A DNA stretch of 64,000 bases. Origin: Candidatus Gastranaerophilales bacterium. GTDB taxonomy: Bacteria > Cyanobacteriota > Vampirovibrionia > Gastranaerophilales > Gastranaerophilaceae. Every line of letters begins with the position of its first letter. Within the stretch, counting starts at the first letter, position 1. The position numbers were made by a program, and so were the translations under genes. The notes under the pieces were generated by a model that saw only the letters and a list, made by a program, of their open reading frames with translations, was not told where the DNA came from and did no database searches. The stretch lies in assembly GCA_944325105.1 (NCBI GenBank), contig CALUYW010000014.1:1-64000 (forward strand), given 5' to 3'. Shown piece after piece: positions 43,329-61,998 of the stretch.

Positions 43329-43350
43329 AAATGACAATTGAATATTTTTA

Positions 43351-43504: not shown

Positions 43505-43590
43505 TGTCGTGTATCAGGGATTTTGAGAAAAAGTGTTTTGTATCAGGGATTTTGACATAAAGTATCGCGAGTTTGACATATTAGTCGGAA
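43505..43590 (+). mobile_element. Candidate transposon end with multiple transposase-binding-like repeats
   Basis: The gene-free stretch 43459-43766 contains TGTCG at 43505, then the 17-base repeat TGTATCAGGGATTTTGA at 43510-43526 and again at 43539-43555, and a diverged copy GTATCGCGAGTTTGACA at 43562-43578. TTAGTCGGAA (43581-43590) follows and recurs at 63204-63213 in front of the transposase gene. Repeated short sites near a TGT terminus are typical of Mu, Tn7 and IS21-like ends. Nothing else is recognised between 43591 and 43766. The exact end and any target duplication are not resolved. Confidence 0.5.
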
Positions 43591-44180: not shown

Positions 44181-45845
44181 CTAATCATTTAATATAAAAT
44201 TGTAAAAATCTTTTTTAACGCTTTCTTTGTAATAAGCATATAATAATGATTTTGCTCTTGATAGACCAACATAATTCAACATCCGATTATTAACATCGCT
44301 AAATCCATCAATATCTATATAAAAAATTATGTCTTCGTCTAATCCTTTAAAGGACTGCACTGTATAGTATTTTATTGAATTTCTGTCGGTTTCAGGTAAA
44401 TCGTGCATTTCTTTTATACTATAATTACATATAGATGGAGTATTTTTTAATCCTGAATTTTTTAATTTGTATTTTGACAAAATTATAATATTATGAGGTC
44501 TTATTCCACCTGTAATTAGAGATTGTATTCTATATTTCAATTTTGATACTAATTCTTTATCATCTTCATATGGCTCAATCACGACATCTTGGCCTGATAT
44601 ATTCATTATGTGAGCAGCACCTGTCTTTGTTATTGCAGCAACCTTCGAGGCAATTTGTTTTGTATTTCTACAATTGGTATTAAGTTTATAAGAAAAAGCC
44701 CCGCAACCTTTTTTCAGATATTCTATGGTTTCATTAAAATCGTGCGAAGATTTAAATATATTTTGATTAGGATCATATAAGAAAACCCATTTCCCTTTTT
44801 CAATACCATCATTAAGAAATAGAGACAATGCTTCAATAATATTTAAATCCATTAAATCCTGTGCTTCATCAACTATTAAAATATCGTATTTATTTGTAAC
44901 AATATTATTTTTAAGGAAGTTTTTACACGATTCAGATAAATTTATATTATTGTTAAAATCAATACCCAATAAATGGTTAAAAGTACCAACGTAAGATTCT
45001 TTGGAGATATTACCAATTACGCGTTGTGCATACTTTGCCATGTTTGAATTAAAACAAATGTAGGCAACCTTCTTTCCTGAAACAATAAGTTTTTGTACTT
45101 GTTCCATGGCAATTATGCTTTTACCAGTCCCGGCAACACCTTGAATGAGCAAGCGATCATTTTCATTTATCAAATCATTTAAAATGAAACTTTGTTCCTT
45201 GGTCAATTGAATTATTTGTTTATCTAAATATTCAATTTCAGTATTTAATACTGGAATTGCATTAATGTCAGACCTTAATAATACTTGTAAATCAATAATA
45301 TCCTTATCAGATAATATTTTCCCTTGAATATTCTGTGTTTTCAGATATTTATCTTCCCAATATTTATATGTTGCTGAAATGTAATCTTTAAAACTTCCAT
45401 TATAACCATAGTCAAATTTTACTTCCGATACTATATCGTTTCCTGTAACATTAAATATACATTCTGGGAAAATTACTCCCATTCCAACAATAACATCTTT
45501 GAATTTAGGGATACTTTTTATGTGTTTTATTAGCGCATACATACAATCTTTGGCTTGATTGAACGGATTCTTGATTTTATTTTTTTTGTCGTTTTTATCG
45601 GTTGAAAACCATTCTCCTGCTTCGCGACTTATTACACCGCCTTTAACCTCAAAACATATTAGCCCTCTTTTGGTAATCAAAAGAAAATCAATTTCCCCAA
45701 ATAATTTATGTTCTTGATTTTTTTGCCACACAGAATATAAAACGATACCATTGCTTTCAAGATTTGAAAACATGTTAAAGACAAGCCTTTCACCATTTAG
45801 TTTTGGATTTTCTTGATCTATGCAATTAGGGATTATGGTAGTCAT
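44181..45845 (-). CDS. NERD nuclease-related domain fused to an SF1 helicase
   Basis: A 554-residue protein. The N-terminal NERD domain (about 18-130) keeps a PD-(D/E)XK-like core: FGEIDFLLITKRG (Glu51, Asp53) and ICFEVKGG (Glu66, Lys68). A helicase domain follows with Walker A LIQGVAGTGKSIIA (236-243), Walker B ILIVDEAQDL (326-330), WVFLYDPNQNIF, VQSFKGLDEDI and LSRAKSLLYAYY. Such fusions occur in defence and repair loci. AGGAG at the drmB-like stop is its ribosome site, so it is the last large gene of the minus-strand defence operon. The acidic NERD residues suggest active nuclease chemistry, but this is inference. Confidence 0.85.
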   Translation of the reverse strand: MTTIIPNCIDQENPKLNGERLVFNMFSNLESNGIVLYSVWQKNQEHKLFGEIDFLLITKRGLICFEVKGGVISREAGEWFSTDKNDKKNKIKNPFNQAKDCMYALIKHIKSIPKFKDVIVGMGVIFPECIFNVTGNDIVSEVKFDYGYNGSFKDYISATYKYWEDKYLKTQNIQGKILSDKDIIDLQVLLRSDINAIPVLNTEIEYLDKQIIQLTKEQSFILNDLINENDRLLIQGVAGTGKSIIAMEQVQKLIVSGKKVAYICFNSNMAKYAQRVIGNISKESYVGTFNHLLGIDFNNNINLSESCKNFLKNNIVTNKYDILIVDEAQDLMDLNIIEALSLFLNDGIEKGKWVFLYDPNQNIFKSSHDFNETIEYLKKGCGAFSYKLNTNCRNTKQIASKVAAITKTGAAHIMNISGQDVVIEPYEDDKELVSKLKYRIQSLITGGIRPHNIIILSKYKLKNSGLKNTPSICNYSIKEMHDLPETDRNSIKYYTVQSFKGLDEDIIFYIDIDGFSDVNNRMLNYVGLSRAKSLLYAYYKESVKKDFYNFILND

Positions 45846-45856
45846 AATATATTCTC

Positions 45857-47677
45857 CTATGATACTTTATCCTTAAAAAAGGCTATGTTTCTATTATCTG
45901 GTTCACCAATAATCGCAGCCCTATCGAGTAAACAGTTTCTTGATACACAACTTGTTTCGGGTAATAAGGTACAAGCATGACATGCTGCATAATTCAGAGA
46001 ATTAAACCCTTGAGATTTCGATTCTATGCATATCGGGTCATTTGAACACCAGTACGCGGTTTGCAACATTTCATCAATGAGTTTTTTTAAGTTTTCTTGT
46101 TTTCCTTCTCTGACCAATCCTCCTAAACTTCCGTCACAATCGGTTGCTGCGGTATAAATTAAAATTCCAAACATTTCATCATTTTCATCGTCTCTAAATG
46201 TACTGTATATTTTTTCTTTTAATGATGTTGTATTGTACCCGCATGTATATGCTAACTGTCGAATCAGTAAATGTGATAATGTATGTAATAAAACATACTG
46301 AGATGAAAACATTCCTTTTGCTATATCAAAAGGCATTCTTTTACCCATATCCTCATATCTGTTTTCGACTTCAGAAACCCATTTTTGAACCGTTTCTTTT
46401 CTTAATTTTATAAAAATACCTTCCCCGAATAATTCAACTGCCGGTAACCATTCTATGTTAGGATTTAAAGATAATGGTGTAAATTCACGATCCATTAATC
46501 CTAACTTTTTGATTGTCTCTTCACTATGCTCAATTTCCGGGAATATTCTTCTAAAACCTTTTAAGACCTGTACTTCCCTCAAACGCTTTACTAATTTTAT
46601 TTCTTCAATATATTCGGAATATTCTTCGGGAACGGTCTCTTTGACAGTTTTGAAATATTTGTGATTAACGTCCGGCATACATAAAGCATAATACTCATTT
46701 TTGATTAAGTCTTTTTCAGTAGGAGTATCTCCTTCATCAGAAAAACATTTTTCGATTGCTTTTTTTAGCATTTCTATACTTAAGCCGAATTTATTTTTTA
46801 TATTTTGCATTGAATAAAAAACATTAAGCCAATTTGGTCCGCTTTGTTTCATCATATCTATATTATCTTTATTGTTTTGCAAGAAATAATTAATATCTTC
46901 ACTCCAAGGCGGAATCGTCAAGGCACTTACATTGACCGAATAGTACACATTGTTTGCCGTTCTTTGAAGGGTTCTCAGGTCAGCATTACATTTCTCTTTT
47001 TGAGATGTTTTATAGTTGTTTCCATCAATCCATGGCATATTACCTTTGCATTTACCAAACTGTTTTAATGCTCCTTCATTCATGCACCCTGCCATAGATT
47101 CCCATACTCCACAAGTTTCGCATGCAATAATTATACCGTCTAAACCTGCCGTTTCAGGTTTATATTTTAATGTCAACCTATGATTTGTGCATTCGGGATG
47201 CTTGCGTCTGTGCACCCACTTCCCATATGGAAAATCTTCCAGATGTCCATTCGGACATGCTGCCAGAAATCTTGAAGGGACCAGTTGCGTTCCGCAATTG
47301 TTACAATATAATTTCCCTGAACCGGATTTGCTAATTTCCCAATATTTATCGAGCTGTCCGCAGTTAGGACAATAATAATAATATGGAAATCTGAATATAG
47401 GTATTCCAAAATAACCATCATTGACCTTATCTCCCGCAGAAACAGGCTGAATAAAGAATTTCTTACCTAACATTTTCGATAAATTTGGTTCTCGAATTTT
47501 AAGTATTCTATATTCAAAATCTTCTTTGCAATTAATATTCCAATTATCTATTCCCGATATAATTCCGGATATGTCAGGTAAATCCACTATTGCCCCACAT
47601 CCAAATGTTGTAACAAGTTGGGATCTTCTTAATTCACCTCTTTTTTTATTTTTATCTTTATTTTTTTGTTTTAACAT
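45857..47677 (-). CDS. drmB: DrmB-like DUF1998 protein (DISARM family)
   Basis: A 606-residue protein matching DrmB. The N-terminus (RRSQLVTTFGCGAIVDLPD) is characteristic. A zinc-ribbon-like cluster (YYCPNCGQ, then YCNNCGTQ and ACPNGHLEDFPYG) lies at about residues 105-165. The C-terminal DUF1998 region holds LLHTLSHLLIRQLAYTCGY and a Cys-rich NYAACHACTLLPETSC...NCLLDRAAIIG end. In DISARM, DrmB forms a complex with DrmA to recognise and block incoming phage DNA. Its AAGGAG site overlaps the stop of the drmA-like gene. It is slightly shorter at the N-terminus than some DrmB proteins. Confidence 0.88.
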   Translation of the reverse strand: MLKQKNKDKNKKRGELRRSQLVTTFGCGAIVDLPDISGIISGIDNWNINCKEDFEYRILKIREPNLSKMLGKKFFIQPVSAGDKVNDGYFGIPIFRFPYYYYCPNCGQLDKYWEISKSGSGKLYCNNCGTQLVPSRFLAACPNGHLEDFPYGKWVHRRKHPECTNHRLTLKYKPETAGLDGIIIACETCGVWESMAGCMNEGALKQFGKCKGNMPWIDGNNYKTSQKEKCNADLRTLQRTANNVYYSVNVSALTIPPWSEDINYFLQNNKDNIDMMKQSGPNWLNVFYSMQNIKNKFGLSIEMLKKAIEKCFSDEGDTPTEKDLIKNEYYALCMPDVNHKYFKTVKETVPEEYSEYIEEIKLVKRLREVQVLKGFRRIFPEIEHSEETIKKLGLMDREFTPLSLNPNIEWLPAVELFGEGIFIKLRKETVQKWVSEVENRYEDMGKRMPFDIAKGMFSSQYVLLHTLSHLLIRQLAYTCGYNTTSLKEKIYSTFRDDENDEMFGILIYTAATDCDGSLGGLVREGKQENLKKLIDEMLQTAYWCSNDPICIESKSQGFNSLNYAACHACTLLPETSCVSRNCLLDRAAIIGEPDNRNIAFFKDKVS

Positions 47678-47685
47678 AATGATAA

Positions 47686-50600
47686 CTACTCCTTAACATA
47701 TAGATTTGCAGTTGTTTCGACACTTCTCATTGAATTTAGAGCTCTAAAACGACTCTCCTCATCACTATCCATGTCAAAAAGTGCTTTATCTGTACAAAAA
47801 TAGTCTTTATATATCAGTTCATTTTTTGTACGTGCCAATCTGTTCCACTCTTCTTCTATTTCTTCGATTTCACTTCTTACATTATCAAGTTCATTTGGGT
47901 CAATGTTTTGCACATATTCGAAAATATAATCTCTTATTTCTCTTAACTCCAAAGCATTTTTATCGTGCTTCTTATAGTTTATAGCAGCATCATTTGCTCG
48001 CAAATCATCAATCAAATAACGACAAAGCATAATATATATTGTCTGCAAGGCACGATCTCTTGCTCTGTCTGCAAACGGTGTTATACTTGTTGCTTCGACA
48101 TATTTATAAAAACTTTGATGATATTGTGTAAACTGTTCAAAGTGTGATCTATCTCTTGATTTCGCCTGATTATATGTAGCAATTACCAATCCGGGATTAC
48201 TTCTCCCGACTCGGCTGGTTGCTTGTATATATTCTGCTGTCAATTTAGGTTGTCCGACAACAACCATAGTACCGAGCCTTCCTACATCTACACCAACAGA
48301 TATCATATTAGAAGCCAATAAAAAGTCGTATGGATTAGTCGTATTATCTTTTCTGTATTTGCTTTCTAATTCATGTAAACTTGCCCCGATTTGTTCACTT
48401 GGAATCCGACTTGTAAGTTCCATATATTTCTTATATGTTTTTTCATCATTTATCGGATATAAAGATTTAAATTTTGTATCTCTGAGATATTTATATCTGT
48501 CCTGAATGTCATCTATGACCCTTACAATTGCACCACCCAACTCTCGCAATGTATTAAAGTATGAAGTAATTGTCCAATATGCGTCTATTACATCTTCACT
48601 ATATGTTCCTTTTGATTCCAAATATCTGGTTGCAAACAATAGCGAGGTCATAACCCTTATCATCATGGTGGTAGGGCTTGTTCCGATTCCCATACAACCA
48701 AGATATTTTCTGGATGGTTTATCTTCAGGTTTTGAAATAACAGCGAAAAATGAATCTTCTATATCAATACCTTGTGCAGGGAATTGTTTATAGTCTGCAG
48801 CATAAAGTTTTTCTATTTGATCTTTTGCATTTTTAATTGTTGCAGTGGATGCAATAATTTTAGGATAATAACCTTCTTTTGAAGTTGTCAACTTTTTTAT
48901 TGCACATTCGTATAACCCTGCTATTGTACCTAATGGCCCAGAAATTAGGTGTAGTTCATCTTGAATGATTAAATCAGGAGGATTGAAAGTTTTTCCGTTT
49001 GTACAATTACCAAATAATGCTCCTGCATCATCATTTAACGCAATTTGTGCAAATTTATCTATAGTAGCAACCACAAAAGTTGGAGGATATTGATATATTT
49101 CTTCATCAATTAAAATAATAGGCAAACCTGAATGAAAATTACAATCTTGATTTGGACATTTAATAATCATTTTATAGTTTTTAATTTCATAATTTTCTTC
49201 TTTTATATCTGCACCACACCAGGGACATTTTTTGATTTGAGCAGGATTCCCTATTTTTCTTATCGTTTCATCATATTTCCGGCTTGAATCGTCTGCGTTT
49301 AAATATTTTTCAGCATCCTTTATTTTGTTTGGCGTAAGCGCTTCTCCTGCCCAAAGACCAATTGTTATAGATTCACCGGGAATGTTTTCAGCTTTTCTTA
49401 TTTGCTCACATGCACATATTAACGCAGAAGCTCTTTCAAATTGCTGGAAAGTAAGCAACCTTAATGTGTAACGCATAAATACAGCAACACCATTACCATC
49501 CGTACCATATTTTAAACGTCTTAAAAATATGGTAAATGCTGCAATTCCAAGATATGCCTCTGTCTTACCACCACCTGTCGGGAACCAAAGTAAGTCTACA
49601 AGTTTTCTTTCATCGCTATTTGGCAATGCAATTGATGGTATTTCTTGCAAAAAGAATGCTAACTGAAATGGATACCATTCTATCGGCTCTTCTTTCTTTT
49701 TTATTTCCAGTTGTTTTCTACGTTGCAAATACATTGCTTTATTGGCTAATTTGAATGCCCTCTCAATGGTTTTATCTTTATCTATCAATTCTCCTGCGAC
49801 TTTTATTCTTTCGCAAGATTCTCGGCATTTTTTAAGATTATCTTTTGCAATTTTTTCAAGTTTTTTAGGATAATTAGCAATTTCGCTTTCTCTTTTTGAT
49901 ATCCACCCAGAATATTCATTACATAATTTATTTATTCCTGTGACTATATCTTCTTTTTTTGCTTCAGAAATAAACTTCATCGATAATATATCACTTTTAA
50001 AATCATCTGAAGGTTTCATTTGTCGGACTGTATATTCAGGCAAAAATTCTGATTTTATTGATTTTATATATTTTTTATTTTCATCAAAATCCCAACTTAC
50101 CGCACAACCATGTCCTTGTGCATAACTTTGCATTTTATAATACAGTAAATCCATTTCTTCGGGTTCAGCTAAATATATATTCCTTTCTATCGGACTGAAG
50201 GTATTTTTATCAATTGCTTCTATTCTGATTTCAGGTTGAAATAACGTAAATATTGATTTTTCTTCTATATCTTCACATTTACTTTTCATATTTGACAGAC
50301 TTACCGTTATTGTTGTATTAGTATCATCATAAGTTTTTCTACGATTTACTCTTAGCAATACATTTGAATCTTCTATTGGTGGTTCAATTTTAGGGTTTTT
50401 AACACTTAATATACGCTCATATTTATAAAATTCTCTCTTATATTGCTTCCTCTTTTTCTTTGGTGTTTTATCTTCTTCGGATTCTTCATCTGACATTTCT
50501 AAGGTTTGTTCAGTTTCCTCCTGTTCAAAAGGTAAATATTTAGCATAACTGACAATCACTTTTATTTTTTCAATATCATTATTTACTGAAAAGGATATCC

Positions 50601-50883
50601 CCATTGAAGATGGATTTGAGGTATTGCATAATGCAATTTCATCAAATGTTTCGGTGAAATCACTTTTTTCCATATCGTTTTCTTTATATTCCGACATTGA
50701 TTGAACAATATCGGGATTATCATATTTAATTGCATCTTGCGGATATAATTTTCCTACCAGGTAGCAATTTACAGGCAGTTCACTGGTAATTTTTTCATCT
50801 TCCGTTACAGGACCTAATAAGTCTTGTTTTATTATATTTGTAATTTCATTTCTGGCATTATAATACTCATTAAATTTGTTCAT
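47686..50883 (-). CDS. drmA: DrmA-like SF2 helicase (DISARM family)
   Basis: A 1065-residue protein with the DrmA layout: an N-terminal region of about 400 residues, then a helicase core with Walker A LLWFPTGGGKTEAYLG (435-441), a zinc-knuckle-like insertion (C553, C556, C576, C581), and Walker B IIQDELHLISG (642-645). Motif III-like IIASTATIKNA, GVDVGRLGTMVVVGQP and IQATSRVGRS (motif VI) follow. The core translocates on or unwinds DNA. I use the ATG at 50883, which has GAGGGA upstream, 13 bases after the preceding gene. drmB follows directly, which supports the family call. Confidence 0.9.
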   Translation of the reverse strand: MNKFNEYYNARNEITNIIKQDLLGPVTEDEKITSELPVNCYLVGKLYPQDAIKYDNPDIVQSMSEYKENDMEKSDFTETFDEIALCNTSNPSSMGISFSVNNDIEKIKVIVSYAKYLPFEQEETEQTLEMSDEESEEDKTPKKKRKQYKREFYKYERILSVKNPKIEPPIEDSNVLLRVNRRKTYDDTNTTITVSLSNMKSKCEDIEEKSIFTLFQPEIRIEAIDKNTFSPIERNIYLAEPEEMDLLYYKMQSYAQGHGCAVSWDFDENKKYIKSIKSEFLPEYTVRQMKPSDDFKSDILSMKFISEAKKEDIVTGINKLCNEYSGWISKRESEIANYPKKLEKIAKDNLKKCRESCERIKVAGELIDKDKTIERAFKLANKAMYLQRRKQLEIKKKEEPIEWYPFQLAFFLQEIPSIALPNSDERKLVDLLWFPTGGGKTEAYLGIAAFTIFLRRLKYGTDGNGVAVFMRYTLRLLTFQQFERASALICACEQIRKAENIPGESITIGLWAGEALTPNKIKDAEKYLNADDSSRKYDETIRKIGNPAQIKKCPWCGADIKEENYEIKNYKMIIKCPNQDCNFHSGLPIILIDEEIYQYPPTFVVATIDKFAQIALNDDAGALFGNCTNGKTFNPPDLIIQDELHLISGPLGTIAGLYECAIKKLTTSKEGYYPKIIASTATIKNAKDQIEKLYAADYKQFPAQGIDIEDSFFAVISKPEDKPSRKYLGCMGIGTSPTTMMIRVMTSLLFATRYLESKGTYSEDVIDAYWTITSYFNTLRELGGAIVRVIDDIQDRYKYLRDTKFKSLYPINDEKTYKKYMELTSRIPSEQIGASLHELESKYRKDNTTNPYDFLLASNMISVGVDVGRLGTMVVVGQPKLTAEYIQATSRVGRSNPGLVIATYNQAKSRDRSHFEQFTQYHQSFYKYVEATSITPFADRARDRALQTIYIMLCRYLIDDLRANDAAINYKKHDKNALELREIRDYIFEYVQNIDPNELDNVRSEIEEIEEEWNRLARTKNELIYKDYFCTDKALFDMDSDEESRFRALNSMRSVETTANLYVKE

Positions 50884-50896
50884 TATCTTCCCTCTT

Positions 50897-53356
50897 TTAA
50901 AATTCACCAAATCCTGTAAATGATATTCCGGTTACTGGTGTGATTGTACCATTTTTATCTTTATTTCTTCTTAAATATGTAAACTTTTTATTAACATATA
51001 ATTTACTAATAACCGGCAATGTCAGATTATTTTTTTTGTGATGTAATAAATCTTTAACACTATCTGTTAGTTCGCTTGTCATTTTTCCTATATCTATCCA
51101 ATTTCTATTAATTTTACATTCAATATGATAAAAATTATCCTTTGAGCTTCTGGTTAATCGTATTTCCGTATTATTTTTAATTTTTTGACGAACAATCTCA
51201 TAATCATCGCTAAATTCGTCATAGCTAATATATTTTTCTAATATACCAATGGCCACAGGATGCATTTCAGGTCCTTTATACCATATTTTTTTATTTTTTT
51301 TATACCCTACTTTTTCCAACGTTTCAGGTTCAAGTAATAATGATATATTTTTTTTAGGTCTTGTTAATGCTACATACATTTTTCTATGTTGATAAGGATC
51401 TCCTTCCGGTTTATAAATTCTTTCTGATGAACCAGTTATAAACTTATAAAAATTCATATCAACAGCAACCTGATCAAATTCTCTGCCTTTTGCTTTATGA
51501 ATAGTTGATACTTCCAATAATGATGGTTTAGGTAAATACATTGCTGTTTTAGAATCAATCTCTTTAGATTTTATATACAGTTTTTCTAAAAAATCTTTAA
51601 TATTTAATACATTAGATGATTTAGTCAGGCTATCCCAAAAGACTTCAATATAATCTTTTCCTATTTCTTTGTTGTTTGCATCAGATAGTTGTATCTTTTT
51701 ATTTTGTACTATTTGTACAAAATCATCAAAATACATATTTTCTTTTTCATAGCCATAAAAGACACTCGCAATCCAAGGGGCATATGTAAAACTCCTCCTA
51801 TCATTTTCTCCGGATGGATTTATTGTAAAATTAACTTTCTTTTTTCTTAATGCGGATGCGTAATTTAATGCTTGGCCATTGTTACTTGTTAAAATGGCGA
51901 ATTTTTGATTATCCGTACAACTTTCTATTGCTATGCATATTTCATTTAATGGTCTTTTTGCTATATCATTGCTAATATCTCTCAAAACATATTTTAATTC
52001 GGATTTATTATCATTAAGAATTTCTTTTCTATAATCCGAGGTTAAGTTTGCTAATTTTTCAGTTTGTCTGTGATTTATATTTCTTAATTCAACTAAATCT
52101 TTGGCCTCAAACATCTCTTTAGCTGCACTATAAAAATCGGAAGAAGTCATTTTAATATTTGTTACAGTATCATCCTCAAAATCATATATTGCCTGACATG
52201 TATCACCAAATAGCGTGAATGAAATTTTTTGTTTTTTGCAAGCCTTCAATATTTCCAATACAAAATATGCTAAAGAATTTGTCAAATCTTGAATTTCATC
52301 AATAAGAAAATATTTATTACCTTCCAATATATCAGGATTATTTTTCAAAAATTCAGCTGCCTGTATTACAGATTCTGTATACGAGGAACTTCTATGATAT
52401 TTTTTGTTATTATCTTCATTGCTATCATATTCACAATAATTTATTCGCCCTGCAAAAGAATTAAATGTACATATATCAACATTATTTAACGATCTTTTTC
52501 CTCCTGCCCTGACAAAATCTTTGAGTCTTGTTTTTATTTCATTCACAACTGCATTTGTAAAACTTAAAACAACAATTCCTTCCGGATCGGCATCTTGATT
52601 TGTTACTAAATCATTAATCTTTTGTATAAGTGTATATGTTTTACCAACTCCGGGACCAGCATTAACAAGAAAACCTTTATCAATACTTGCCTTAATAATT
52701 TCCTCTTGCTCAACAATCCTAAATTCACCGGCCTGCTGTTCAAAACTTATATCCAGAATTTCATCTTCAGGTTCGTTTTCATTTGCATAATTATATTCTT
52801 CAATTTCTTTCGCTGATTCTTCTTGAACATTAACCAGCTCAGGAGAGTCATCCCATATAACAGAATTTTTATCGGTATTTACTGTTTGTTCATATTCTTC
52901 ATATGGTATTTCAATCGGATTATATGAATCATATTCATCAGCAAAAGAAGTCTTAACAGGATAATAAAAAATATCCTTTGCGACTCCAGTATATTCATAA
53001 TCAATTGGAACTTTTTTTTCGGGAGCAAAGTTTTTATATTCCTCATCTTCTAATGGGATATTTTTTCGACAGTTATCTAATTCTTTACAATCAATATTTA
53101 CACACTTGCATATATAATCATCGCCCTTCTTTCCCCAACACGGATCAGGATATTTTAAATTTGAACATATTGATCGTTCAGCAACTATTCTTTTTTGCAT
53201 TTCTGAAAAGCAATGAGTATCCAACTGTTTTCTATATTTATAAAAATATAATAAATCAGGGTCATCAATTTTAGAAAAGAATTCCTTGTCGTTATGACGA
53301 AAATCTTCTTTCAAAACATATAAATTACTTTTGTATTTCAAATTTGATTTATGCAT
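50897..53356 (-). CDS. UvrD/Rep-type SF1 helicase with Cys-rich N-terminal domain
   Basis: An 819-residue protein. The first 230 residues are not helicase; they include a Cys cluster (CWGKKGDDYICKCVNIDC and a following DNC) that may bind zinc or an iron-sulfur group, and an acidic stretch. The SF1A motifs then come in order: FLVNAGPGVGKTYTLI, VLSFTNAVVNEIKTRL, FLIDEIQDLTNS, FTLFGDTCQAIYDFE, NHRQTEKLANL, VSTIHKAKGREFDQV and YVALTRPKKNISLLL. All catalytic motifs appear intact. The ATG at 53356 overlaps the Hsp70-fusion stop by eight bases and has AGGGG upstream. Its place between a chaperone-like gene and drmA suggests a shared system. Confidence 0.85.
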   Translation of the reverse strand: MHKSNLKYKSNLYVLKEDFRHNDKEFFSKIDDPDLLYFYKYRKQLDTHCFSEMQKRIVAERSICSNLKYPDPCWGKKGDDYICKCVNIDCKELDNCRKNIPLEDEEYKNFAPEKKVPIDYEYTGVAKDIFYYPVKTSFADEYDSYNPIEIPYEEYEQTVNTDKNSVIWDDSPELVNVQEESAKEIEEYNYANENEPEDEILDISFEQQAGEFRIVEQEEIIKASIDKGFLVNAGPGVGKTYTLIQKINDLVTNQDADPEGIVVLSFTNAVVNEIKTRLKDFVRAGGKRSLNNVDICTFNSFAGRINYCEYDSNEDNNKKYHRSSSYTESVIQAAEFLKNNPDILEGNKYFLIDEIQDLTNSLAYFVLEILKACKKQKISFTLFGDTCQAIYDFEDDTVTNIKMTSSDFYSAAKEMFEAKDLVELRNINHRQTEKLANLTSDYRKEILNDNKSELKYVLRDISNDIAKRPLNEICIAIESCTDNQKFAILTSNNGQALNYASALRKKKVNFTINPSGENDRRSFTYAPWIASVFYGYEKENMYFDDFVQIVQNKKIQLSDANNKEIGKDYIEVFWDSLTKSSNVLNIKDFLEKLYIKSKEIDSKTAMYLPKPSLLEVSTIHKAKGREFDQVAVDMNFYKFITGSSERIYKPEGDPYQHRKMYVALTRPKKNISLLLEPETLEKVGYKKNKKIWYKGPEMHPVAIGILEKYISYDEFSDDYEIVRQKIKNNTEIRLTRSSKDNFYHIECKINRNWIDIGKMTSELTDSVKDLLHHKKNNLTLPVISKLYVNKKFTYLRRNKDKNGTITPVTGISFTGFGEF

Positions 53357-55694
53357 ATTCCCCTGAATCCTCAATTTGATAATACACATTTAATTTATCA
53401 TGTACCCATAATGATTCTGAAAGTTTTTTATTCGTTTCAATTTTAGCTTTAAATGTAAAATTAGGATCAACATAATATGATAATGTTATTTTTTCATCAT
53501 CAAAGGCTCTTACAGGTACTGTTTTATATTCGTTAAAGGTCCTATCCGCTTCATATTCGGCATCGGCAAAAACAAATTTTGCATTTTTATCTTCATTGGG
53601 ATTGCCCTCAGTAAGTGCCAATGTTATCGGAGGAGAACCTTTACATGGAATTGGTTGTCCTTCTTCAAGTAAGGGTAAAAAAGAACCGTCGCTCAATACA
53701 AGACCTATTGGTCTGCTCAATGCAAATTTACCCGGTTTTGTTGCAATGACTGCAGCACCTTTTGCAATATTCCACCCTGTTGATTCCGGAATAAGAAGTT
53801 TACTTCCATATTTTGTCAATAATTTGTCTTTTAATGGTCTTAAATTACTTGAACCACCTACGCAAAGGACACAATCCAAAGTTTCTGTATTCAAATTTGC
53901 TTTTGTTATGGTCTTTTCAAGACATTCAATAGCCTTATCTATTTCATTATCAATAAGATTTTTAAATTGATCATACGAAATATCATATCTTAATTGAGAA
54001 CCTAAATAATTATTCAATTTTATACTAACTTCATTCTGATCACTAAAATTGCATTTTGCTCGTTCGCTTCTTGCTAACAATAAAAATTTCATTTCATCGG
54101 GAACTTCATCAAATAACGTATTTAAATTATTCTTTTCACAAAAAGATTTATGTGCTTGTTCGGCTAGCTTTTTATCAATATCATCTCCTGCAAGCTTTAT
54201 TCCTCCTGTTGCAATCTCGCTTACACGACCGTTTCTCACATTTAAAACTGATATATCTAAAGTCCCACCGCCCCAATCAAATACTGCAATATTGTTCTTT
54301 GCTCTTAAATTGTTATAGTTGCAACAAAAGGCAGCAGTAGGTTCACTAACAAACATTGTTATTTCAAAGCCTGCATTTTGAGCTGCTTGACGTAAGCATT
54401 CTTTTTCTTTTGATGTAAAACCTACAGGAATGGCAACAACTGCTTTATTCATTTGATCGCCGCGTTCTACTACTTTATCACACAATGCTTTAAATAGCAC
54501 AGCCGCAATATCTATGGGTGTATAAAGTTTATCGGCTATCTTCCATTCTTTATTACTGTTAATTATTGATTTTATGGATTCAAAATAATAATAATCATCC
54601 GAAAGGTATTCAGTCAGATTATCTTTAATGTCACTCCCTGTAATAATTTCTGTACCGTCTTTTTTTATTGCAACAAGTGAGGGCATAGGATAACCTGTTT
54701 CATCTCCGTACATTAAAGTTTTAATATGAGAACCCGTTCCCGTAACAGAAGCTAATGCACTATTTGTAGTTCCAAAATCTATACCAAACCAACTATATTC
54801 ATTCCCCTTAAGGTTGTTATCAGTATTCTGATTTTCATTGTATAAATCATTATCTTCGGTCGATTCATCTTGAGAATCTTCGTAAGGTTCTTCGTTATCA
54901 GTTATTTCGTAGTTTTCCTCAATATTGTCTAAATCTGAGATTTTATTGTTAATCAAACTTTTCTGATCATCATTTTCTGCATTTTCAAGAGCCAATTCAT
55001 AATATTCACGTGCAGAATCATAATCATTTGTTTTTATTTTTAAATCGGCTATTGCTTTATAATAATAGTAAACGTCATCAGGATTTAAATCTATACCTGA
55101 AAGAAAATTATCCTCTGCATCAGTATATTGTTCCGATAAATAGTATGACATTCCGCACCAATAGAAATAGTCGGGATTTGTATCATCAAATTCTAATGTT
55201 TTTTCAAACATTTCTATGGCTTTATCATAATTGTCGTTATGATAATATGCCAATCCGCACCAATAAAAATATTTTTCATCATTAGAATTTATCTTTATGG
55301 ATTTTTCAAATTTTTCTACAGCATCTTCATATTCTTCTTTATTATAGTATGCTTTGCCACACCAATAAAAACATTCGTCATCGTTATCATATATTTCTAT
55401 TGATTGTTCAAAATTCTCAATAGCATTGTCATAGTCTTCATTTTTATAATATGCTAACCCGCATTGATAATAAAAATCTTCATTTGTGTCATCTATTTCT
55501 ATAGTTTTTTTAAATTTTTCTATTGCTTCTTCATAATCTTCATTTTCATAATATGCCAAACCACACCAATAGAAATAATCTTCATTTTGACGATCTAACC
55601 GTATAGCATGTTCAAATTCTATTGCCGCATCTTCAAATTCATTATTATAGTAATAATCTTTTCCTTGTTTAAAATGTTCTCCAGCAGTATCCAT
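53349..55694 (-). CDS. TPR-Hsp70 fusion protein
   Basis: A 781-residue protein. Residues 4-241 are seven tandem 34-residue TPR units, each like EDYFYWCGLAYYENEDYEEA. An acidic linker (242-300) leads to a complete Hsp70-type nucleotide-binding domain: phosphate-1 WFGIDFGTTNSALA (304-312), SEPTAAF (450-456), phosphate-2 VFDWGGGTLDISVL (472-482), and the adenosine motif CVGGSSNLRPLKDKL. The last 120 residues form a short beta-rich region, like a reduced substrate-binding domain, without the helical lid. It probably couples ATP-driven conformational change to protein-protein contacts made by the TPRs. Housekeeping DnaK is unlikely given the fusion and the defence neighbours. Confidence 0.88.
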   Translation of the reverse strand: MDTAGEHFKQGKDYYYNNEFEDAAIEFEHAIRLDRQNEDYFYWCGLAYYENEDYEEAIEKFKKTIEIDDTNEDFYYQCGLAYYKNEDYDNAIENFEQSIEIYDNDDECFYWCGKAYYNKEEYEDAVEKFEKSIKINSNDEKYFYWCGLAYYHNDNYDKAIEMFEKTLEFDDTNPDYFYWCGMSYYLSEQYTDAEDNFLSGIDLNPDDVYYYYKAIADLKIKTNDYDSAREYYELALENAENDDQKSLINNKISDLDNIEENYEITDNEEPYEDSQDESTEDNDLYNENQNTDNNLKGNEYSWFGIDFGTTNSALASVTGTGSHIKTLMYGDETGYPMPSLVAIKKDGTEIITGSDIKDNLTEYLSDDYYYFESIKSIINSNKEWKIADKLYTPIDIAAVLFKALCDKVVERGDQMNKAVVAIPVGFTSKEKECLRQAAQNAGFEITMFVSEPTAAFCCNYNNLRAKNNIAVFDWGGGTLDISVLNVRNGRVSEIATGGIKLAGDDIDKKLAEQAHKSFCEKNNLNTLFDEVPDEMKFLLLARSERAKCNFSDQNEVSIKLNNYLGSQLRYDISYDQFKNLIDNEIDKAIECLEKTITKANLNTETLDCVLCVGGSSNLRPLKDKLLTKYGSKLLIPESTGWNIAKGAAVIATKPGKFALSRPIGLVLSDGSFLPLLEEGQPIPCKGSPPITLALTEGNPNEDKNAKFVFADAEYEADRTFNEYKTVPVRAFDDEKITLSYYVDPNFTFKAKIETNKKLSESLWVHDKLNVYYQIEDSGEYA

Positions 55695-55707
55695 TTAATT
55701 CCCTTAA

Positions 55708-56874
55708 TTATTTTTTTACTATTTCTTTTTCTTTTGATCCTTCCTTTTCTTTCACGCTAATACCGTTTTTTTCAAGTAGTTGAAAAATTGTATTTATTTG
55801 ATCCCTTAAATTTTCGCCTAAATCAACGGTCATTGGCATATTTTTTGCGCTCTTAAAATCTATATATTCGCATTTTAACTTTGAAGCTATTGAATTTAAC
55901 AACTCTTTTTGTGAATTCTGTGCATTTTTTTCAAATATGTTGAGGATATCCATATGCTTTTTTAAATCATTTTGCAAAGTATTGCATCTATGCATAAGTT
56001 CTTCATTGTATTTTTTAGATTCTTCCAACTCCTTAGACATACTATGCAGTTTGTCACTTATAATTTTATTTTCATCCTTACTCATTTCTATTATTGATTG
56101 GAGCTCTTTTACCTTATTTTCTAATTCAGTTATTTTATGATTGTCAACTTCATCTTTTTTTATTGTTTGATTTTCATTTTTCTTGTGCAAAACAGTTTTT
56201 TTATTTTTCTTTTTATTATTTGTTTCCGGTTGTTTTTTCTTTTCAGTTATCTTGGTATCCGGTTCTGCCTTTGCATTTAAACTTTTTAGAACATTCTCTA
56301 TAACTTGTTTTTCACTTTTTGTAGGATTTTTTATTTCACTTACAGCTTTTGTAAATATTTTTTCAAATTGGAAAATTACCTCATAATCAATATCTAATTG
56401 TTTAAATTTCGGGATTTTAGCTTTAGGATTAAGTATTTGAATAAAGTATTTCTTTATTGTAATATTTATATCCCCAAATTCTTTACCCTCTTTATTTTTG
56501 ATATTCTTTGGTATTACCACAATGATTGTTCTTATTATTTCTTTATTATCCGAATCAAATGCAGACATTAATTCAGCAAGTATTGATATTAAAAATTTAA
56601 AGGCTATACCCTTATTATTATTTTTAAAAGTTTTCGTTTTGAATAAAGCATTGATTGCATTCACTTTTTCTCTATTTTGTAGAGTGTTGATGTGTAGTAC
56701 AATCGCTTTAGCTCCTTCAAATGAAAAACCTTTATCTAGCATGGTTACAGTATTTTCATTTATTCCTTGTTTTGAAAACTCTTTGGAGAGTAATTCCGTA
56801 AAGTTTTTCTTTTTTTCAATTGAAGCTTCGCCTTTTTTCTTTATATTCAAAAGTTCGTCTAATTTTTTATCCAT
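55708..56874 (-). CDS. Coiled-coil protein, possible partner of the TPR-Hsp70 protein
   Basis: A 388-residue protein of unknown family. Residues 1-200 are a mixed alpha-helical domain; a Lys-rich linker lies at about 205-245; a long coiled coil (ITELENKVKELQSIIEMS and later heptads) covers about 248-320. The conserved-looking C-terminus has the segments EYIDFKSAKNMPMTVDLGEN and LRDQINTIFQLLEKNGI. Coiled coil plus compact tail, 13 bases upstream of an Hsp70 gene, recalls GrpE-like exchange factors, but I see no clear GrpE signature. The partner idea is inference. Confidence 0.6.
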   Translation of the reverse strand: MDKKLDELLNIKKKGEASIEKKKNFTELLSKEFSKQGINENTVTMLDKGFSFEGAKAIVLHINTLQNREKVNAINALFKTKTFKNNNKGIAFKFLISILAELMSAFDSDNKEIIRTIIVVIPKNIKNKEGKEFGDINITIKKYFIQILNPKAKIPKFKQLDIDYEVIFQFEKIFTKAVSEIKNPTKSEKQVIENVLKSLNAKAEPDTKITEKKKQPETNNKKKNKKTVLHKKNENQTIKKDEVDNHKITELENKVKELQSIIEMSKDENKIISDKLHSMSKELEESKKYNEELMHRCNTLQNDLKKHMDILNIFEKNAQNSQKELLNSIASKLKCEYIDFKSAKNMPMTVDLGENLRDQINTIFQLLEKNGISVKEKEGSKEKEIVKK

Positions 56875-57270: not shown

Positions 57271-57687
57271 ATGGACAGACATACTAAAGAACAACGGCAT
57301 AAAAATATGCAAGCGGTAAAAGGCAAAAATACCAAACTTGAAAACAAGGTTATGACTTATTTATGGCAGCAAGGTTATAGATTCAGGAAAAATGTAAAAG
57401 ATCTTGAGGGAAAGCCCGATGTGGCAATTAAGAAATACAAGTTGGTAATTTTTATTGATTCATGTTTTTGGCACAAATGTCCAATTCATTATAAATCACC
57501 TTCTACAAATTTTGAATTTTGGGAAAATAAAATATCAGGGAACCAAAAAAGAGATATTCAGGTAACAGAATATTACAAATCAAATAATTGGAACATCCTC
57601 AGAATTTGGGAACACGAATTAAAAAATGATTTTGAAAAGACAATGCATAAAGTCATAAATTTTATTGAAATGTCAAAAGGCACTTAG
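57271..57687 (+). CDS. vsr: Very short patch repair endonuclease (Vsr)
   Basis: A 138-residue Vsr nuclease. Family features: TKEQRHKNMQAVKGKNTKLE at the N-terminus, the catalytic Asp50 in EGKPDVAI, VIFIDSCFWHKCPIH with His68 and zinc ligands, and NNWNILRIWEHEL at the end. Vsr nicks next to T:G mismatches that arise when 5-methylcytosine deaminates, so it protects methylated sites from mutation. It converges on, and overlaps by four bases, a C5-cytosine methyltransferase, which is its expected partner. No strong ribosome-binding site is visible. Confidence 0.93.
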   Translation: MDRHTKEQRHKNMQAVKGKNTKLENKVMTYLWQQGYRFRKNVKDLEGKPDVAIKKYKLVIFIDSCFWHKCPIHYKSPSTNFEFWENKISGNQKRDIQVTEYYKSNNWNILRIWEHELKNDFEKTMHKVINFIEMSKGT

Positions 57688-58772
57688 CTATACTTTTTAT
57701 TATGTTCTATAAACATTTTTCCAAAAGTTTTGGCAAGTAATACCGGAACCGCATTACCGACTTGTCTTGCTAAAGCTCCAAGACTATTGCCTTCAAATAC
57801 AAAATTATCAGGGAAAGTTTGCAGTTTAGCTGCTTCTCTTACACTTAAAGCTCTGTCTTGTTCAGGATGACCATATCTGCCGTTAGAAATATTTGTACAC
57901 TTAGTGGTAAGGGTTACGGAAGGTTTGTCCCATTCAAGTCTGCCATATACATCTGAATGTCCCTTATGCTTCTTATGACATTCAAGCATTAATTCTTCAG
58001 GCCAATCTTTTCTTCCCTGCCCTTCTTTAATACATTTTATTCTTTCTAAATTTAATTCGGATAGGGCGGCAGCTCTGTGATTAGGGAAATTTGTATTTTT
58101 GCATTCTTCACCATGTTTTAATACTGGGTATTGCCCGTTTCCGATAGCATCTCTAACGGTTTTAAACGGTAGCAATCCCGGATTTGTACCGTATTTTTTC
58201 TCAGGATAAGTTAATTCACCGAGTTGGCTTGCAATTAATACCAATCTTTTTCTTCTTTGTGGTACACCATAATCTTCGGCGTGTACTACCTGAGGAACGG
58301 GAACATGATAGCCCATGCTTTCAAGTTTATTGATAAAGTTTGGTAAAGGACCGTCTTTATCAATTTTTTGCAATCCCGGTACATTTTCGCATAATATAAA
58401 ATCCGGTTGACAGTCTTCTACAAACCTTAAAAACTCACTTAAAAGATTTATGCGTTCATCTTTTGAATCAAATCGTTTTTTATTCTGTGTTGAAAACGGC
58501 TGACATGGTGCACATCCACAAAATAAAATACGATTTCCGCTATTTCTGTATTTATCTACTATATTTTTAATTCTGGTTGTTTCTACAAATGTTATATCAT
58601 CAGGTATTGTACCACATTCCGGTTTAATATTTCTTTCAAAGGTTTTTAATGCTTCTTTATTATTATCCAGACCCAAAACTATATCCATACCTGCTTCTCG
58701 AAGGCCTTCGCTTGTCCCTCCACAGCCCGAGAAGAAATCAAATACTTTAATTTTGCTCTTTTCTTTATGCAT
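57684..58772 (-). CDS. DNA (cytosine-5)-methyltransferase
   Basis: A 362-residue C5 methyltransferase. Motif I FDFFSGCGGTSEGL binds AdoMet; motif IV GCAPCQPFS holds catalytic Cys90; motif VI CENVPGL has Glu129; motif VIII is QRRKRLVLIAS, and motif X VGNAVPVLLAKTFG closes the domain. It is comparable to DrmMII of class 2 DISARM and to methyltransferases of other restriction-like systems, and would mark host DNA as self. The recognition sequence cannot be read from the protein. An AGGAAGG site precedes the ATG. Confidence 0.94.
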   Translation of the reverse strand: MHKEKSKIKVFDFFSGCGGTSEGLREAGMDIVLGLDNNKEALKTFERNIKPECGTIPDDITFVETTRIKNIVDKYRNSGNRILFCGCAPCQPFSTQNKKRFDSKDERINLLSEFLRFVEDCQPDFILCENVPGLQKIDKDGPLPNFINKLESMGYHVPVPQVVHAEDYGVPQRRKRLVLIASQLGELTYPEKKYGTNPGLLPFKTVRDAIGNGQYPVLKHGEECKNTNFPNHRAAALSELNLERIKCIKEGQGRKDWPEELMLECHKKHKGHSDVYGRLEWDKPSVTLTTKCTNISNGRYGHPEQDRALSVREAAKLQTFPDNFVFEGNSLGALARQVGNAVPVLLAKTFGKMFIEHNKKYS

Positions 58773-59176: not shown

Positions 59177-61102
59177 ATGGCGAATGCAAGATGGGATTTT
59201 CCCAAATTAGGCGGCGGGCAAAAGCAAGGTTATACAAACAGCGGTATAGAAACATTTAAAGGGACTGAATTACTTGATAATTTAGCAAGAGAAATATGTC
59301 AAAATTCATTAGATGCAAAAGATTCTGATTCCTGTGAACCCGTAACTGTTGAATTTAAATTAACCACGATCCAAAAAGAAGATCATCCGTTTTTACGTGA
59401 ATATTCCGAATATTTAAAAGGCGGTAAACGTTTTTGGCAAGATAAAAATGATAAAAGGGTAATGCAATTTCTGGATAGGGCAGAAAAAGTAATTGCGGAA
59501 AATCAAATAAAGGTGCTATCTGCAAGTGATTATAACACTACGGGATTAATTGGCTCTGATTGTGGGATGATGGAATCATCTATATGGAGTGCTCTTGTAA
59601 ATTCTGATGGTATATCGGATAAATCTGACGGTTCAGGCGGATCATACGGTATAGGTAAAAATGCACCCTTTGCTTGTTCGGATCTTAGTCTGGTTTTTTA
59701 TAATACTTATGCAAAGGATGGGAAAAAAGCTCTTGAGGGAGTTGCAAGAGCAGCAACTTTAATGGATGATAATGACGAGCTTACTCAAGCTATCGGGCAT
59801 TATCGTTCTGATATAGGCTATAAACCTATAACAGAAGATATTGCTTGTCCTATACGTGATAAATTTGCAAGAGACAGGTATGGTACAGACATAATTATTG
59901 TCGGGTGCAATTCTTTCATTGAAAAAAATCGTGATTGGCAAGATAAACTGGTTCAAGCGGTATTACATCATTTTCTTTTGGCAATAAAGGAAAAGAAGCT
60001 GATTGTAAAAGTAGAAACTGACGTTATTAACAATGAAACTCTCCCTGTACTGATTGAAAAGTATAAAAATGTCAATACAAATTCTTTTTTAACATCTAAT
60101 TTTTATGAAACACTAACTTCTCCTGAAGGTGGGGTTATTTATAAAACAATTATTGATGAAAACGATTTGGAAATTTATCTTAAATCTAAGCCTGATTATA
60201 AAAGAAAAATAGCAAAATTTAGATCTTCGGGGATGCTTGTTTGGGAGCATGGGAAACGCACATATCAAAATTTTACGGCTGTCGTAATTGTTAGGGGTAA
60301 AAATTTAAATGAAATATTAAGAAAAACAGAACCTCCAAAGCACAATATATGGGACGCAAAAAGAATAGAAGATAAAGAAGAAGCAAGGCAAGCACAAAAG
60401 TACATTGAACAAATCGATAATGAAATTTTATCTTCAATATCGAATATATACAGCGAAGAAATTTCTGACAGTGTTGATTCAGGAGTGGGTGAATTTTTAC
60501 CTGATGATTTGAGCAACTTATCGGAAAAGAAACCGGGAACTGATAAATTAAAACCAGTTATAAAAATCGTAGAAAAACCCAAATTACAAAAAATATTTAT
60601 GAATGAAAACATAGACGTAGCAGGAACTGATGAAGGCAAAGAGATCCATGACGAAAGTTTAATAAATAATTCTTCAGATTCAGCTTATAGATTCCCGGAA
60701 TATAAACCCAAAAATAAAGTAGAGAGATATAACGATCCAGATGAAAATAAAAGTGAAGGTATTTCCCCGCAAGAAGGTACTAAAAAACTGACCACCTATC
60801 CAAACATAAAATACCAACGTATAACTGCAGTAAGTCAAAATGCAGGTCTATATAAGATAATTTTATGTCCGACAGAAGATTGCAACTCTCTATATATTGA
60901 ATTTTCTGCCATTGGAGAAGGTGATTCAAACGATAAGATTGTTGTTGAAAAATATACTATAGATAAGCAAACAACGCCTTGTAATAATACTAAAATCGGA
61001 CCTGTTGTAATCGAAAAAGATGAAGCTAAAGAAATATTTGTAACGTTTGAAAATAAAGAAAAAATGTTGATAAATATGAATATCACAGAGGAGGTTGAAT
61101 AA
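59177..61102 (+). CDS. GHKL-type ATPase (MORC/MutL/Hsp90-like)
   Basis: A 641-residue protein with a Bergerat-fold ATP site. The N-box is AREICQNSLDAKD (Glu39, Asn43), a G1-like SASDYNTTGL follows at about 116-124, and the glycine-rich GSGGSYGIGKNAPFA lid at 152-165. The middle has a YGTDIIIVG strand, and the last 200 residues are a separate, poorly conserved beta-rich domain. GHKL ATPases of this kind occur in predicted restriction-like systems with C5 methyltransferases and helicases (Iyer, Abhiman and Aravind, 2008, recalled from memory). ATP binding could clamp DNA. AAGGAG precedes the ATG. Confidence 0.85.
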   Translation: MANARWDFPKLGGGQKQGYTNSGIETFKGTELLDNLAREICQNSLDAKDSDSCEPVTVEFKLTTIQKEDHPFLREYSEYLKGGKRFWQDKNDKRVMQFLDRAEKVIAENQIKVLSASDYNTTGLIGSDCGMMESSIWSALVNSDGISDKSDGSGGSYGIGKNAPFACSDLSLVFYNTYAKDGKKALEGVARAATLMDDNDELTQAIGHYRSDIGYKPITEDIACPIRDKFARDRYGTDIIIVGCNSFIEKNRDWQDKLVQAVLHHFLLAIKEKKLIVKVETDVINNETLPVLIEKYKNVNTNSFLTSNFYETLTSPEGGVIYKTIIDENDLEIYLKSKPDYKRKIAKFRSSGMLVWEHGKRTYQNFTAVVIVRGKNLNEILRKTEPPKHNIWDAKRIEDKEEARQAQKYIEQIDNEILSSISNIYSEEISDSVDSGVGEFLPDDLSNLSEKKPGTDKLKPVIKIVEKPKLQKIFMNENIDVAGTDEGKEIHDESLINNSSDSAYRFPEYKPKNKVERYNDPDENKSEGISPQEGTKKLTTYPNIKYQRITAVSQNAGLYKIILCPTEDCNSLYIEFSAIGEGDSNDKIVVEKYTIDKQTTPCNNTKIGPVVIEKDEAKEIFVTFENKEKMLINMNITEEVE

Positions 61103-61998
61103 TGAAAAATTTAAATAACTTTCCAAATCCTGTGCTTATAAACAATAACATGGACTACGATAACTCGTCGTTTGATATTATATTTGAAAATTTTTCTTAT
61201 GAAAATGATTTATTAAAGTTAAATCTTAAATATGAACTTGAATGCGATAGCCTTACAGAATTTATAAAAGAAGGAAAAGCAAAAGTAATTATTAAGATTC
61301 AAAGTGTTGGTACACCTTATCGTGAAATATTTGAATTTGGCGGCAAACAAGAGATGCATATAAATATAAAGAAAAATGATTTGGCAAAAAAGATATCAAT
61401 AGAAGGGTATGTCATCGCATCAGATAATATTAAGAATTTTCACCCTTCTGAATTAAATGAGTTATTCTTTAGATCCCAAATCTTTGATATAAGAAAAGGT
61501 GATATATTAGCATTGCATCCTGGGTATTCGTTGCCATTAGACTCAAGTGAACTGGAGGGACCGGTTGCATCTATTTTTCAGATTATAAAAAATGAAGAAT
61601 TAAAAGAATCTATAGATGTAATATTGGATACTGATACAGAAAAAATAAACATACATTTAAATAAAATGGCGTATGAATCTTATATAAAAATAAGGTCACA
61701 AAAAGTCTTAGATAAATATTTGGCTGCGGCAATAGTTTTACCTGCATTAACAGAAGCTCTTTATTATATTGCATCAGATGAACAAAACCCTGATAAACCA
61801 TCAGGTTATGAAGATAAACGCTGGTACCGTCAAATTAAAAATAAAATAGAGGAAAAGAAATTATCTTTTGAAGAAAAATCAATGACATCGGTTGCAAGTT
61901 CTCTACTGGGGGAAATAGTTTCAACGGCATTAATTGATTTTGAGGAAACGCTAAGCGGTCTTGCTGACGGTTCAAATGAAATAGGGAGTGTTGATTAA
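61102..61998 (+). CDS. Hypothetical protein, GHKL operon middle gene
   Basis: A 298-residue protein that starts one base inside the GHKL stop and ends one base inside the next ATG, so it is translationally coupled on both sides. The first 130 residues look like a beta-sandwich (alternating strands such as KVIIKIQSV and FEFGGKQEMHINI); the second half is helical with a conserved-looking YLAAAIVLPALTEALYYIAS segment and RWYRQIKNKIEEKKLSF. No known family is recognised. Context suggests a structural or effector subunit of the GHKL module. Confidence 0.7.
   Translation: MKNLNNFPNPVLINNNMDYDNSSFDIIFENFSYENDLLKLNLKYELECDSLTEFIKEGKAKVIIKIQSVGTPYREIFEFGGKQEMHINIKKNDLAKKISIEGYVIASDNIKNFHPSELNELFFRSQIFDIRKGDILALHPGYSLPLDSSELEGPVASIFQIIKNEELKESIDVILDTDTEKINIHLNKMAYESYIKIRSQKVLDKYLAAAIVLPALTEALYYIASDEQNPDKPSGYEDKRWYRQIKNKIEEKKLSFEEKSMTSVASSLLGEIVSTALIDFEETLSGLADGSNEIGSVD

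What the first reader, a model, noticed from the sequence alone, without database searches (positions are those of the whole stretch)
53349..56874. Hsp70 recruited to a defence operon, with seven TPRs fused in front and a coiled-coil gene before it
The Hsp70 nucleotide-binding motifs look complete, the lid is missing, and TPRs replace the usual DnaJ-dependent targeting. The upstream coiled-coil protein could be an exchange factor or client. A chaperone ATPase between a methylase and DNA helicases suggests a conformational switch or sensor of phage proteins.
Basis: partly seen in the sequence, partly recalled or inferred. Interest (0 to 1): 0.8.

Follow-up and report, generated by a model that had tools for sequence, protein, structure and literature searches.

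The report
DISARM class carrying a dedicated Hsp70
A bacterial anti-phage defence operon of the DISARM kind carries its own stripped-down Hsp70 chaperone, always with the same coiled-coil and helicase partners in relatives found mostly in Clostridia, which suggests that a chaperone-type ATP switch has become a working part of a DNA-targeting immune system.

Summary
In detail: seven TPRs, a complete Hsp70 ATPase domain, a beta-type substrate domain and no lid, behind a coiled-coil gene, inside a DISARM operon (DrmA, DrmB, C5-methylase). The association is not random. The same Hsp70 subfamily was found in 14 other loci, mostly Clostridia. In all 15 it is flanked by the same coiled-coil protein and by the same third protein: a UvrD-type helicase with a new Cys-rich N-terminal domain. 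Thirteen of the 15 sit in DISARM operons. All 12 testable DrmAs form one clade that excludes every Hsp70-free DISARM sampled. DrmE sits in that slot in class 2; DrmC, DrmD and DrmE were not found here. This looks like an undescribed DISARM class. The TPRs are not general: only the Gastranaerophilales copies have them. The J-protein-binding arginine and linker are lost in the whole family, also in TPR-less members, so the TPRs did not replace DnaJ targeting. Twice the trio left DISARM, keeping both ends of the third protein while its helicase core decayed. Best reading: a dedicated Hsp70 switch that, with the coiled-coil protein, gates the helicase-nuclease machinery. Mechanism is inferred; no interaction could be modelled.

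The parts
53349..55694 (-). TPR-Hsp70: seven TPRs (about residues 1-245), acidic linker, Hsp70 ATPase domain (about 300-655), SBD-beta-like domain (about 660-781), no lid
   Evidence: Pfam; alignment with 16 relatives and own DnaK
55708..56874 (-). Partner protein: helical-repeat-like domain, 99-residue helix (coiled coil), conserved C-terminal block (EY-DF...DLGENLR...IF..L...GI)
   Evidence: Alignment of 14 relatives; AlphaFold model; HMM
50897..53389 (-). UvrD-type SF1 helicase with N-terminal Cys-rich 'adaptor' (invariant Cys at 75, 96, 101, 107) and conserved C-terminal block; likely start ATG at 53356, overlapping the Hsp70 stop
   Evidence: Pfam; alignments; Foldseek
47686..50910 (-). 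DrmA, DISARM SF2 helicase
   Evidence: NF038325 1015 bits (cut-off 950); PADLOC DrmA 3.7e-238
45857..47677 (-). DrmB, DUF1998/MZB-type partner of DrmA
   Evidence: NF038324 482 bits (cut-off 240); PADLOC 2.3e-87
44181..45845 (-). NERD nuclease + SF1/Schlafen-type helicase; nuclease motif GEID...CFEVKGG present; candidate effector nuclease
   Evidence: Pfam NERD 4.5e-12; PADLOC RTasNERD-Hel 4e-56; motif read from the sequence
57684..58772 (-). C5-cytosine methylase (DrmMII-like)
   Evidence: PF00145 2e-60; PADLOC MTase_II 2.2e-92 and DrmMII 1.1e-58
57271..57687 (+). Vsr endonuclease, found beside DISARM in several relatives too
   Evidence: TIGR00632 140 bits; loci L075, L081, L100
56949..57200 (-). 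Small 83-aa ORF upstream of the coiled-coil gene, no family
   Evidence: not found in Clostridial relatives, so probably not core
43534..43562 (.). Left edge of the transferred block: homology with the second genome starts at 43534, in a 29-bp direct repeat (43505/43534) about 0.1 kb past tRNA-Val 43351-43426

Best explanation
This is a distinct DISARM class in which a three-protein chaperone module (coiled-coil partner, lidless Hsp70, adaptor-bearing UvrD helicase) occupies the place of DrmE. SHOWN by sequence: the fixed trio, intact Hsp70 ATPase residues, loss of lid and of J-protein contacts, one origin with DrmA, and conservation of the two ends of the third protein even where its helicase core has decayed. 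INFERRED: the Hsp70 is not a general chaperone but an ATP-driven clamp. The coiled-coil protein is its constant client or cofactor, standing in for the J-protein/exchange-factor cycle. The Hsp70-coiled-coil unit docks on the Cys-rich and C-terminal ends of the third protein and, through ATP binding and hydrolysis, holds or loads the helicase-DrmAB-NERD machinery, so that it fires only on unmethylated or single-stranded phage DNA. In Gastranaerophilales a TPR array was added later as an extra protein-binding platform.
For: Same gene order CC-Hsp70-UvrD-DrmA-DrmB in 11 loci besides the window (one of them, L102, cut at the contig end before DrmB), plus L099 cut before DrmA. HMMs of coiled-coil, Hsp70 and adaptor hit the same 15 loci and none of 57 Hsp70-free DISARM loci. 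DrmA tree: 12/12 Hsp70-linked DrmAs in one clade, SH-aLRT 98-99, 1 change versus 10-11 in shuffles, 0 of 500. Hsp70 clade 100/99. Distance correlation Hsp70-DrmA 0.959 and Hsp70-DrmB 0.962, close to DrmA-DrmB 0.971. Catalytic residues conserved in all aligned members; the position of DnaK R167 is never R; the VLLLDVT linker is gone. In L101 and L106 the third protein keeps both ends without a working helicase core. DrmE (NF038316, 271 bits) fills the slot in a same-class relative.
Against: No physical interaction is shown or modelled. No phage resistance is tested. The coiled-coil protein has no known fold. With 11-15 sequences co-variation between partners cannot be measured. Similar distances also arise from vertical descent of a linked operon without contact. 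The module is rare: adaptor in none of about 390 other genomes of the Clostridial sample.
Confidence: 0.55

Rival explanations
1. Dedicated assembly chaperone: the Hsp70 and coiled-coil protein only help the large helicase complex fold or assemble and take no part in sensing or firing.
For: A lidless Hsp70 suits large native-like clients (general knowledge); the partners are fixed. The module can serve other large operons (L106).
Against: Other DISARM classes assemble without it (57 Hsp70-free DISARM loci); loss of J-protein contacts in all members argues against a normal folding cycle.
Confidence: 0.22
2. Sensor of phage proteins: the SBD (and TPRs) bind unfolded or specific phage proteins, and the Hsp70 cycle then releases the helicase-nuclease.
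For: The SBD-beta region is retained. A chaperone (DnaJ) is needed for phage sensing by bNACHT25 (PMC12169576). The TPR array in the window could add a binding surface.
Against: DISARM's known trigger is DNA structure (PMC9142583). A constant partner is already present that could fill the SBD. TPRs are absent from most members.
Confidence: 0.15
3. Nucleic-acid targeting subunit, as proposed for CnuD of CoCoNuT systems, where an Hsp70-like protein with HEAT-like repeats and coiled coils is thought to bind RNA.
For: Similar parts list: Hsp70 NBD/SBD, helical repeats, coiled coils (PMC11090510; model).
Against: CnuD's Walker A-like motif is degenerate whereas here all catalytic residues are intact; no McrBC and no HEPN RNase was detected in the operon.
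Confidence: 0.08

Closest known systems
DISARM class 2 (DrmA, DrmB, DrmE, DrmMII, often DrmC)
   Same: DrmA, DrmB and a C5 methylase; in the DrmA tree the Hsp70 clade lies outside but near the DrmE-bearing group; a same-class relative (L075) has DrmE in the slot
   Different: No DrmE, DrmC or DrmD found; instead coiled-coil protein, Hsp70 and adaptor-bearing UvrD helicase, plus a NERD-helicase in part of the loci
CoCoNuT type III CnuD (Hsp70-like, PMC11090510)
   Same: Hsp70-like NBD/SBD with helical repeats and coiled coils in a predicted restriction system
   Different: CnuD goes with McrBC, has degenerate Walker A motifs and is proposed to bind RNA; here the system is DISARM with intact catalytic residues and separate genes
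GTPase-centred conflict systems with HSP70 and GrpE or TPR/DnaJ proteins (Kaur et al. 2020, PMC7159879)
   Same: HSP70 used as a part of a predicted conflict system, sometimes with TPR proteins
   Different: No GTPase, GrpE or DnaJ here; DNA helicases and a methylase instead
Gabija GajB / ARMADA ArmD UvrD-type helicases
   Same: SF1A core (GajB among Foldseek hits; PADLOC GajB 9e-27)
   Different: New Cys-rich N-terminal domain and C-terminal block shared only with the Hsp70 loci sampled; ArmD carries a RelE-like domain instead (PMC12458937)

Membership tests
DISARM | DrmA helicase | tested here: met
   NF038325 1015 bits, cut-off 950
DISARM | DrmB (DUF1998-type) | tested here: met
   NF038324 482 bits, cut-off 240
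DISARM | DNA methylase beside DrmAB | tested here: met
   C5 methylase 57684-58772, PF00145 2e-60; DrmMII model 1.1e-58 but an MTase_II model scores higher
DISARM | DrmC PLD nuclease (frequent, reported dispensable in PMC9142583) | tested here: not met
   No PLD hit among the operon proteins
DISARM class 2 | DrmE | tested here: not met
   No DrmE hit in the operon; none in unassigned ORFs of seven Hsp70 loci tested with NCBIfam; DrmE relatives are found in L075, L082, L088, L139-L141
DISARM class 1 | DrmD SNF2-type helicase and DrmMI adenine methylase | tested here: not met
   No SNF2 or DrmMI hit in the operon
DISARM | Anti-phage activity | not testable with these tools
   -
Hsp70 (DnaK) family | Complete NBD with catalytic Asp/Lys/Glu/Asp/Thr | tested here: met
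   PF00012 1.2e-38; alignment with own DnaK
Hsp70 (DnaK) family | SBD-beta plus alpha-helical lid | tested here: not met
   SBD-beta-like region aligns, lid absent in the whole clade
Hsp70 (DnaK) family | J-protein contacts (R167, VLLLD linker of DnaK) | tested here: not met
   Absent in all aligned members, present in own DnaK; which residues matter is from general knowledge
GrpE-type nucleotide exchange factor (coiled-coil gene) | GrpE fold or sequence | tested here: not met
   No Pfam/NCBIfam hit; Foldseek shows no significant match, best E 0.05
CoCoNuT | McrB GTPase / McrC | tested here: not met
   No such protein in the operon
CoCoNuT CnuD | Degenerate Walker A-like motif | tested here: not met
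   DFGTT intact in all aligned members; definition from PMC11090510

The most novel reading that the evidence does not exclude
The coiled-coil / lidless Hsp70 / adaptor trio is a portable, J-protein-independent ATP switch that different defence systems plug into: into DISARM with a helicase core in the third protein, and into other operons (Thermosyntropha L106 with PLD nuclease, UvrD and BrxP-like genes; Lachnospiraceae L101) with the core lost, so that the same Hsp70 gate can control different DNA-destroying machines.
Probability: 0.4. Interest if true: 0.87.

Novelty: new variant of a known kind. Interest (0 to 1): 0.73.

Why it matters
DISARM's control is unclear: its core senses DNA structure, but the role of the class-specific subunits (DrmD, DrmE) is unknown (PMC9142583). 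A class in which that slot is held by a dedicated Hsp70 with intact catalytic residues, a fixed partner and a recognisable docking domain makes the question testable: mutate the ATPase, the partner or the adaptor and see whether DrmAB still fires. It would also be an Hsp70 that works without J-protein contacts and without a lid, as a switch in an immune complex rather than as a folding machine.

Tried and rejected
TPRs as a replacement for DnaJ targeting: rejected, since TPR-less members lack the same contacts. TPR array taken from the host: own-genome TPR proteins are only 22-33% identical, so no source is named. Coiled-coil protein as GrpE-like: no support. Coiled-coil + Hsp70 pairs in Paenarthrobacter plasmid L004 and viral contig L080 looked like the same module, but their coiled-coil proteins are not detectable homologues (hhalign probabilities 0.4-1.2) and their Hsp70s fall outside the clade: analogous at most. 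Hsp70 as a recent copy of the host DnaK: rejected, long separate clade. Search of phages found only DnaK-like proteins; single-protein viral scans found nothing; coiled-coil protein absent from plasmids and from all but two genomes of the order sample.

Full report
WHAT IS THERE. The operon reads on the minus strand from the coiled-coil gene (55708-56874) through TPR-Hsp70 (53349-55694), a UvrD-type helicase (50897-53389), DrmA (47686-50910), DrmB (45857-47677) and a NERD-helicase (44181-45845), with a C5 methylase and Vsr upstream (families). Gene gaps are -41 to +13 bp, so it reads as one transcription unit (inference). DrmA and DrmB pass NCBI's curated cut-offs. No DrmC, DrmD or DrmE was found.

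THE Hsp70. Aligned with 16 relatives and the host's own DnaK, the catalytic positions are kept: DFGTT, the lysine of S-[IVPF]-K, the glutamate of [SNH]E[PS], and D/T of D[WF]GGGTLD. The C-terminal part aligns with SBD-beta; the protein stops where the lid would start. The arginine four residues before the catalytic glutamate (DnaK R167) is present in the host DnaK and absent from all members; so is the VLLLDVT linker. From general knowledge these bind J-domains, so the family most likely does not use DnaJ. Because the TPR-less members lack them too, the TPRs are not the cause. TPRs occur only in the Gastranaerophilales copies (window; L098, the same block in another genome; L099).

NEIGHBOURHOOD TEST. 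A DrmA-based viral scan, blind to Hsp70, found L081 with the whole operon in the same order and a 491-aa Hsp70 without TPRs. An Hsp70-based scan of 84,980 species found 14 Hsp70s of the subfamily, one of them (L098) the transferred copy of the window's block. With the window and L081 that gives 15 distinct members: 13 in DISARM operons and 2 not (L101, L106). Order and strand are constant and gaps mostly under 20 bp. DISARM itself is uncommon: DrmA over the cut-off in 26 of 386 genomes of the phylum and in 5 of 391 of a Clostridial sample, so 13 of 15 cannot be chance. HMMs of coiled-coil, Hsp70 and adaptor hit the same 15 loci and none of 57 Hsp70-free DISARM loci, a few of which are truncated or near-duplicates. 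The HMMs were built from most of these sequences, so the positive half is partly by construction; the negative half is not.

ONE CLASS, ONE ORIGIN. In DrmA trees the 12 Hsp70-linked DrmAs form one clade (SH-aLRT 99; 98 after adding eight Clostridial DISARMs found by DrmA alone). DrmE-bearing DISARMs form a different group. The Hsp70 clade has 100/99 support. Distances correlate at 0.96 between Hsp70 and DrmA or DrmB and 0.97 between DrmA and DrmB (11 loci); linked inheritance alone could give this. In L075, same class as the window, a DrmE-family protein stands between the methylase and the NERD-helicase-DrmA-DrmB block, the slot that coiled-coil, Hsp70 and UvrD occupy in the window.

THE THIRD PARTNER. 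All members share about 110 N-terminal residues with invariant cysteines, not found in the UvrD helicases of Hsp70-free DISARMs (L083, L084, L086, L094). In L106 (Thermosyntropha lipolytica) and L101 (a Lachnospiraceae MAG) the third protein keeps this end and the C-terminal block, but the helicase core is gone or decayed. L106 continues with a PLD nuclease (weak DrmC match), an unknown 1019-aa protein, a separate UvrD and a BrxP-like protein. The simplest reading is that the ends are what the Hsp70-coiled-coil unit needs. This is the main clue to mechanism, and it is inference.

THE COILED-COIL PARTNER. The model (mean pLDDT 79) has a helical domain, a disordered linker, a 99-residue helix and a short helix that carries the conserved block DLGENLR...IF. 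No solved fold matches. GrpE is not supported. Client, scaffold and cofactor remain open.

MOBILITY. The block is 99.7% identical over 13,990 bp in a MAG of another genus of the family, starting at window 43534 about 0.1 kb past tRNA-Val, with a tRNA-like match at the same place in the other genome. The record titles of close copies read Candidatus Gastranaerophilales. Recent transfer is likely; MAG contamination is less likely because the flank next to the edge differs, but it is not excluded.

LITERATURE. Full-text searches for Hsp70 or DnaK together with DISARM genes returned no description. The 2025 survey of YprA helicases (PMC12458937) does not contain the words Hsp70, DnaK or chaperone. 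The library holds open-licence papers only, and the original DISARM paper is not held, so prior description elsewhere is possible. Closest precedents are CnuD in CoCoNuTs (PMC11090510) and HSP70 in GTPase-centred systems (PMC7159879).

VERDICT. Real, conserved, and best described as an undescribed DISARM class with a dedicated Hsp70 module. The identification is strong (about 0.9); the switch mechanism is the most likely of several (about 0.55).

Noticed in passing
window 59177-62756 (+): Three-gene candidate defence operon next door: PADLOC PDC-M33A, B and C (4e-154, 1e-52, 4e-51).
   Followed up: partly
window 43145-43426: Tandem 92-bp units that repeat the start of the tRNA-Val region just outside the island edge, plus a 29-bp direct repeat at 43505/43534; looks like traces of repeated integration.
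   Followed up: partly
window 63254-64000 (+): ORF running off the window that reads like the N-terminus of a Mu-type transposase (by eye); Pfam shows only weak HTH/MerR.
   Followed up: no
L111 479-17792 (Lachnospiraceae MA2020): Operon with four Hsp70s (one fused to a PIN nuclease domain), unknown proteins and an SNF2 helicase: another chaperone-helicase operon, outside the DISARM Hsp70 clade.
   Followed up: partly
L106 485-12930 (Thermosyntropha lipolytica): Tight operon of the Hsp70 trio, PLD nuclease, 1019-aa unknown, UvrD helicase and BrxP-like PAPS-reductase protein; possibly an undescribed defence system.
   Followed up: partly
L004 13862-18106 (Paenarthrobacter plasmid) and L080 8997-11473: Short Hsp70 preceded by a non-homologous coiled-coil gene; in L004 next to restriction genes.
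   Followed up: partly
L107 15748-17859 (Anaerosalibacter bizertensis): Reverse transcriptase of defence type RT_UG19 directly after DrmB.
   Followed up: no
L108 3856-5514: A TPR protein is encoded a few genes upstream of the coiled-coil gene in a locus whose Hsp70 has no TPRs; perhaps the same function unfused, but the similarity is only generic.
   Followed up: no
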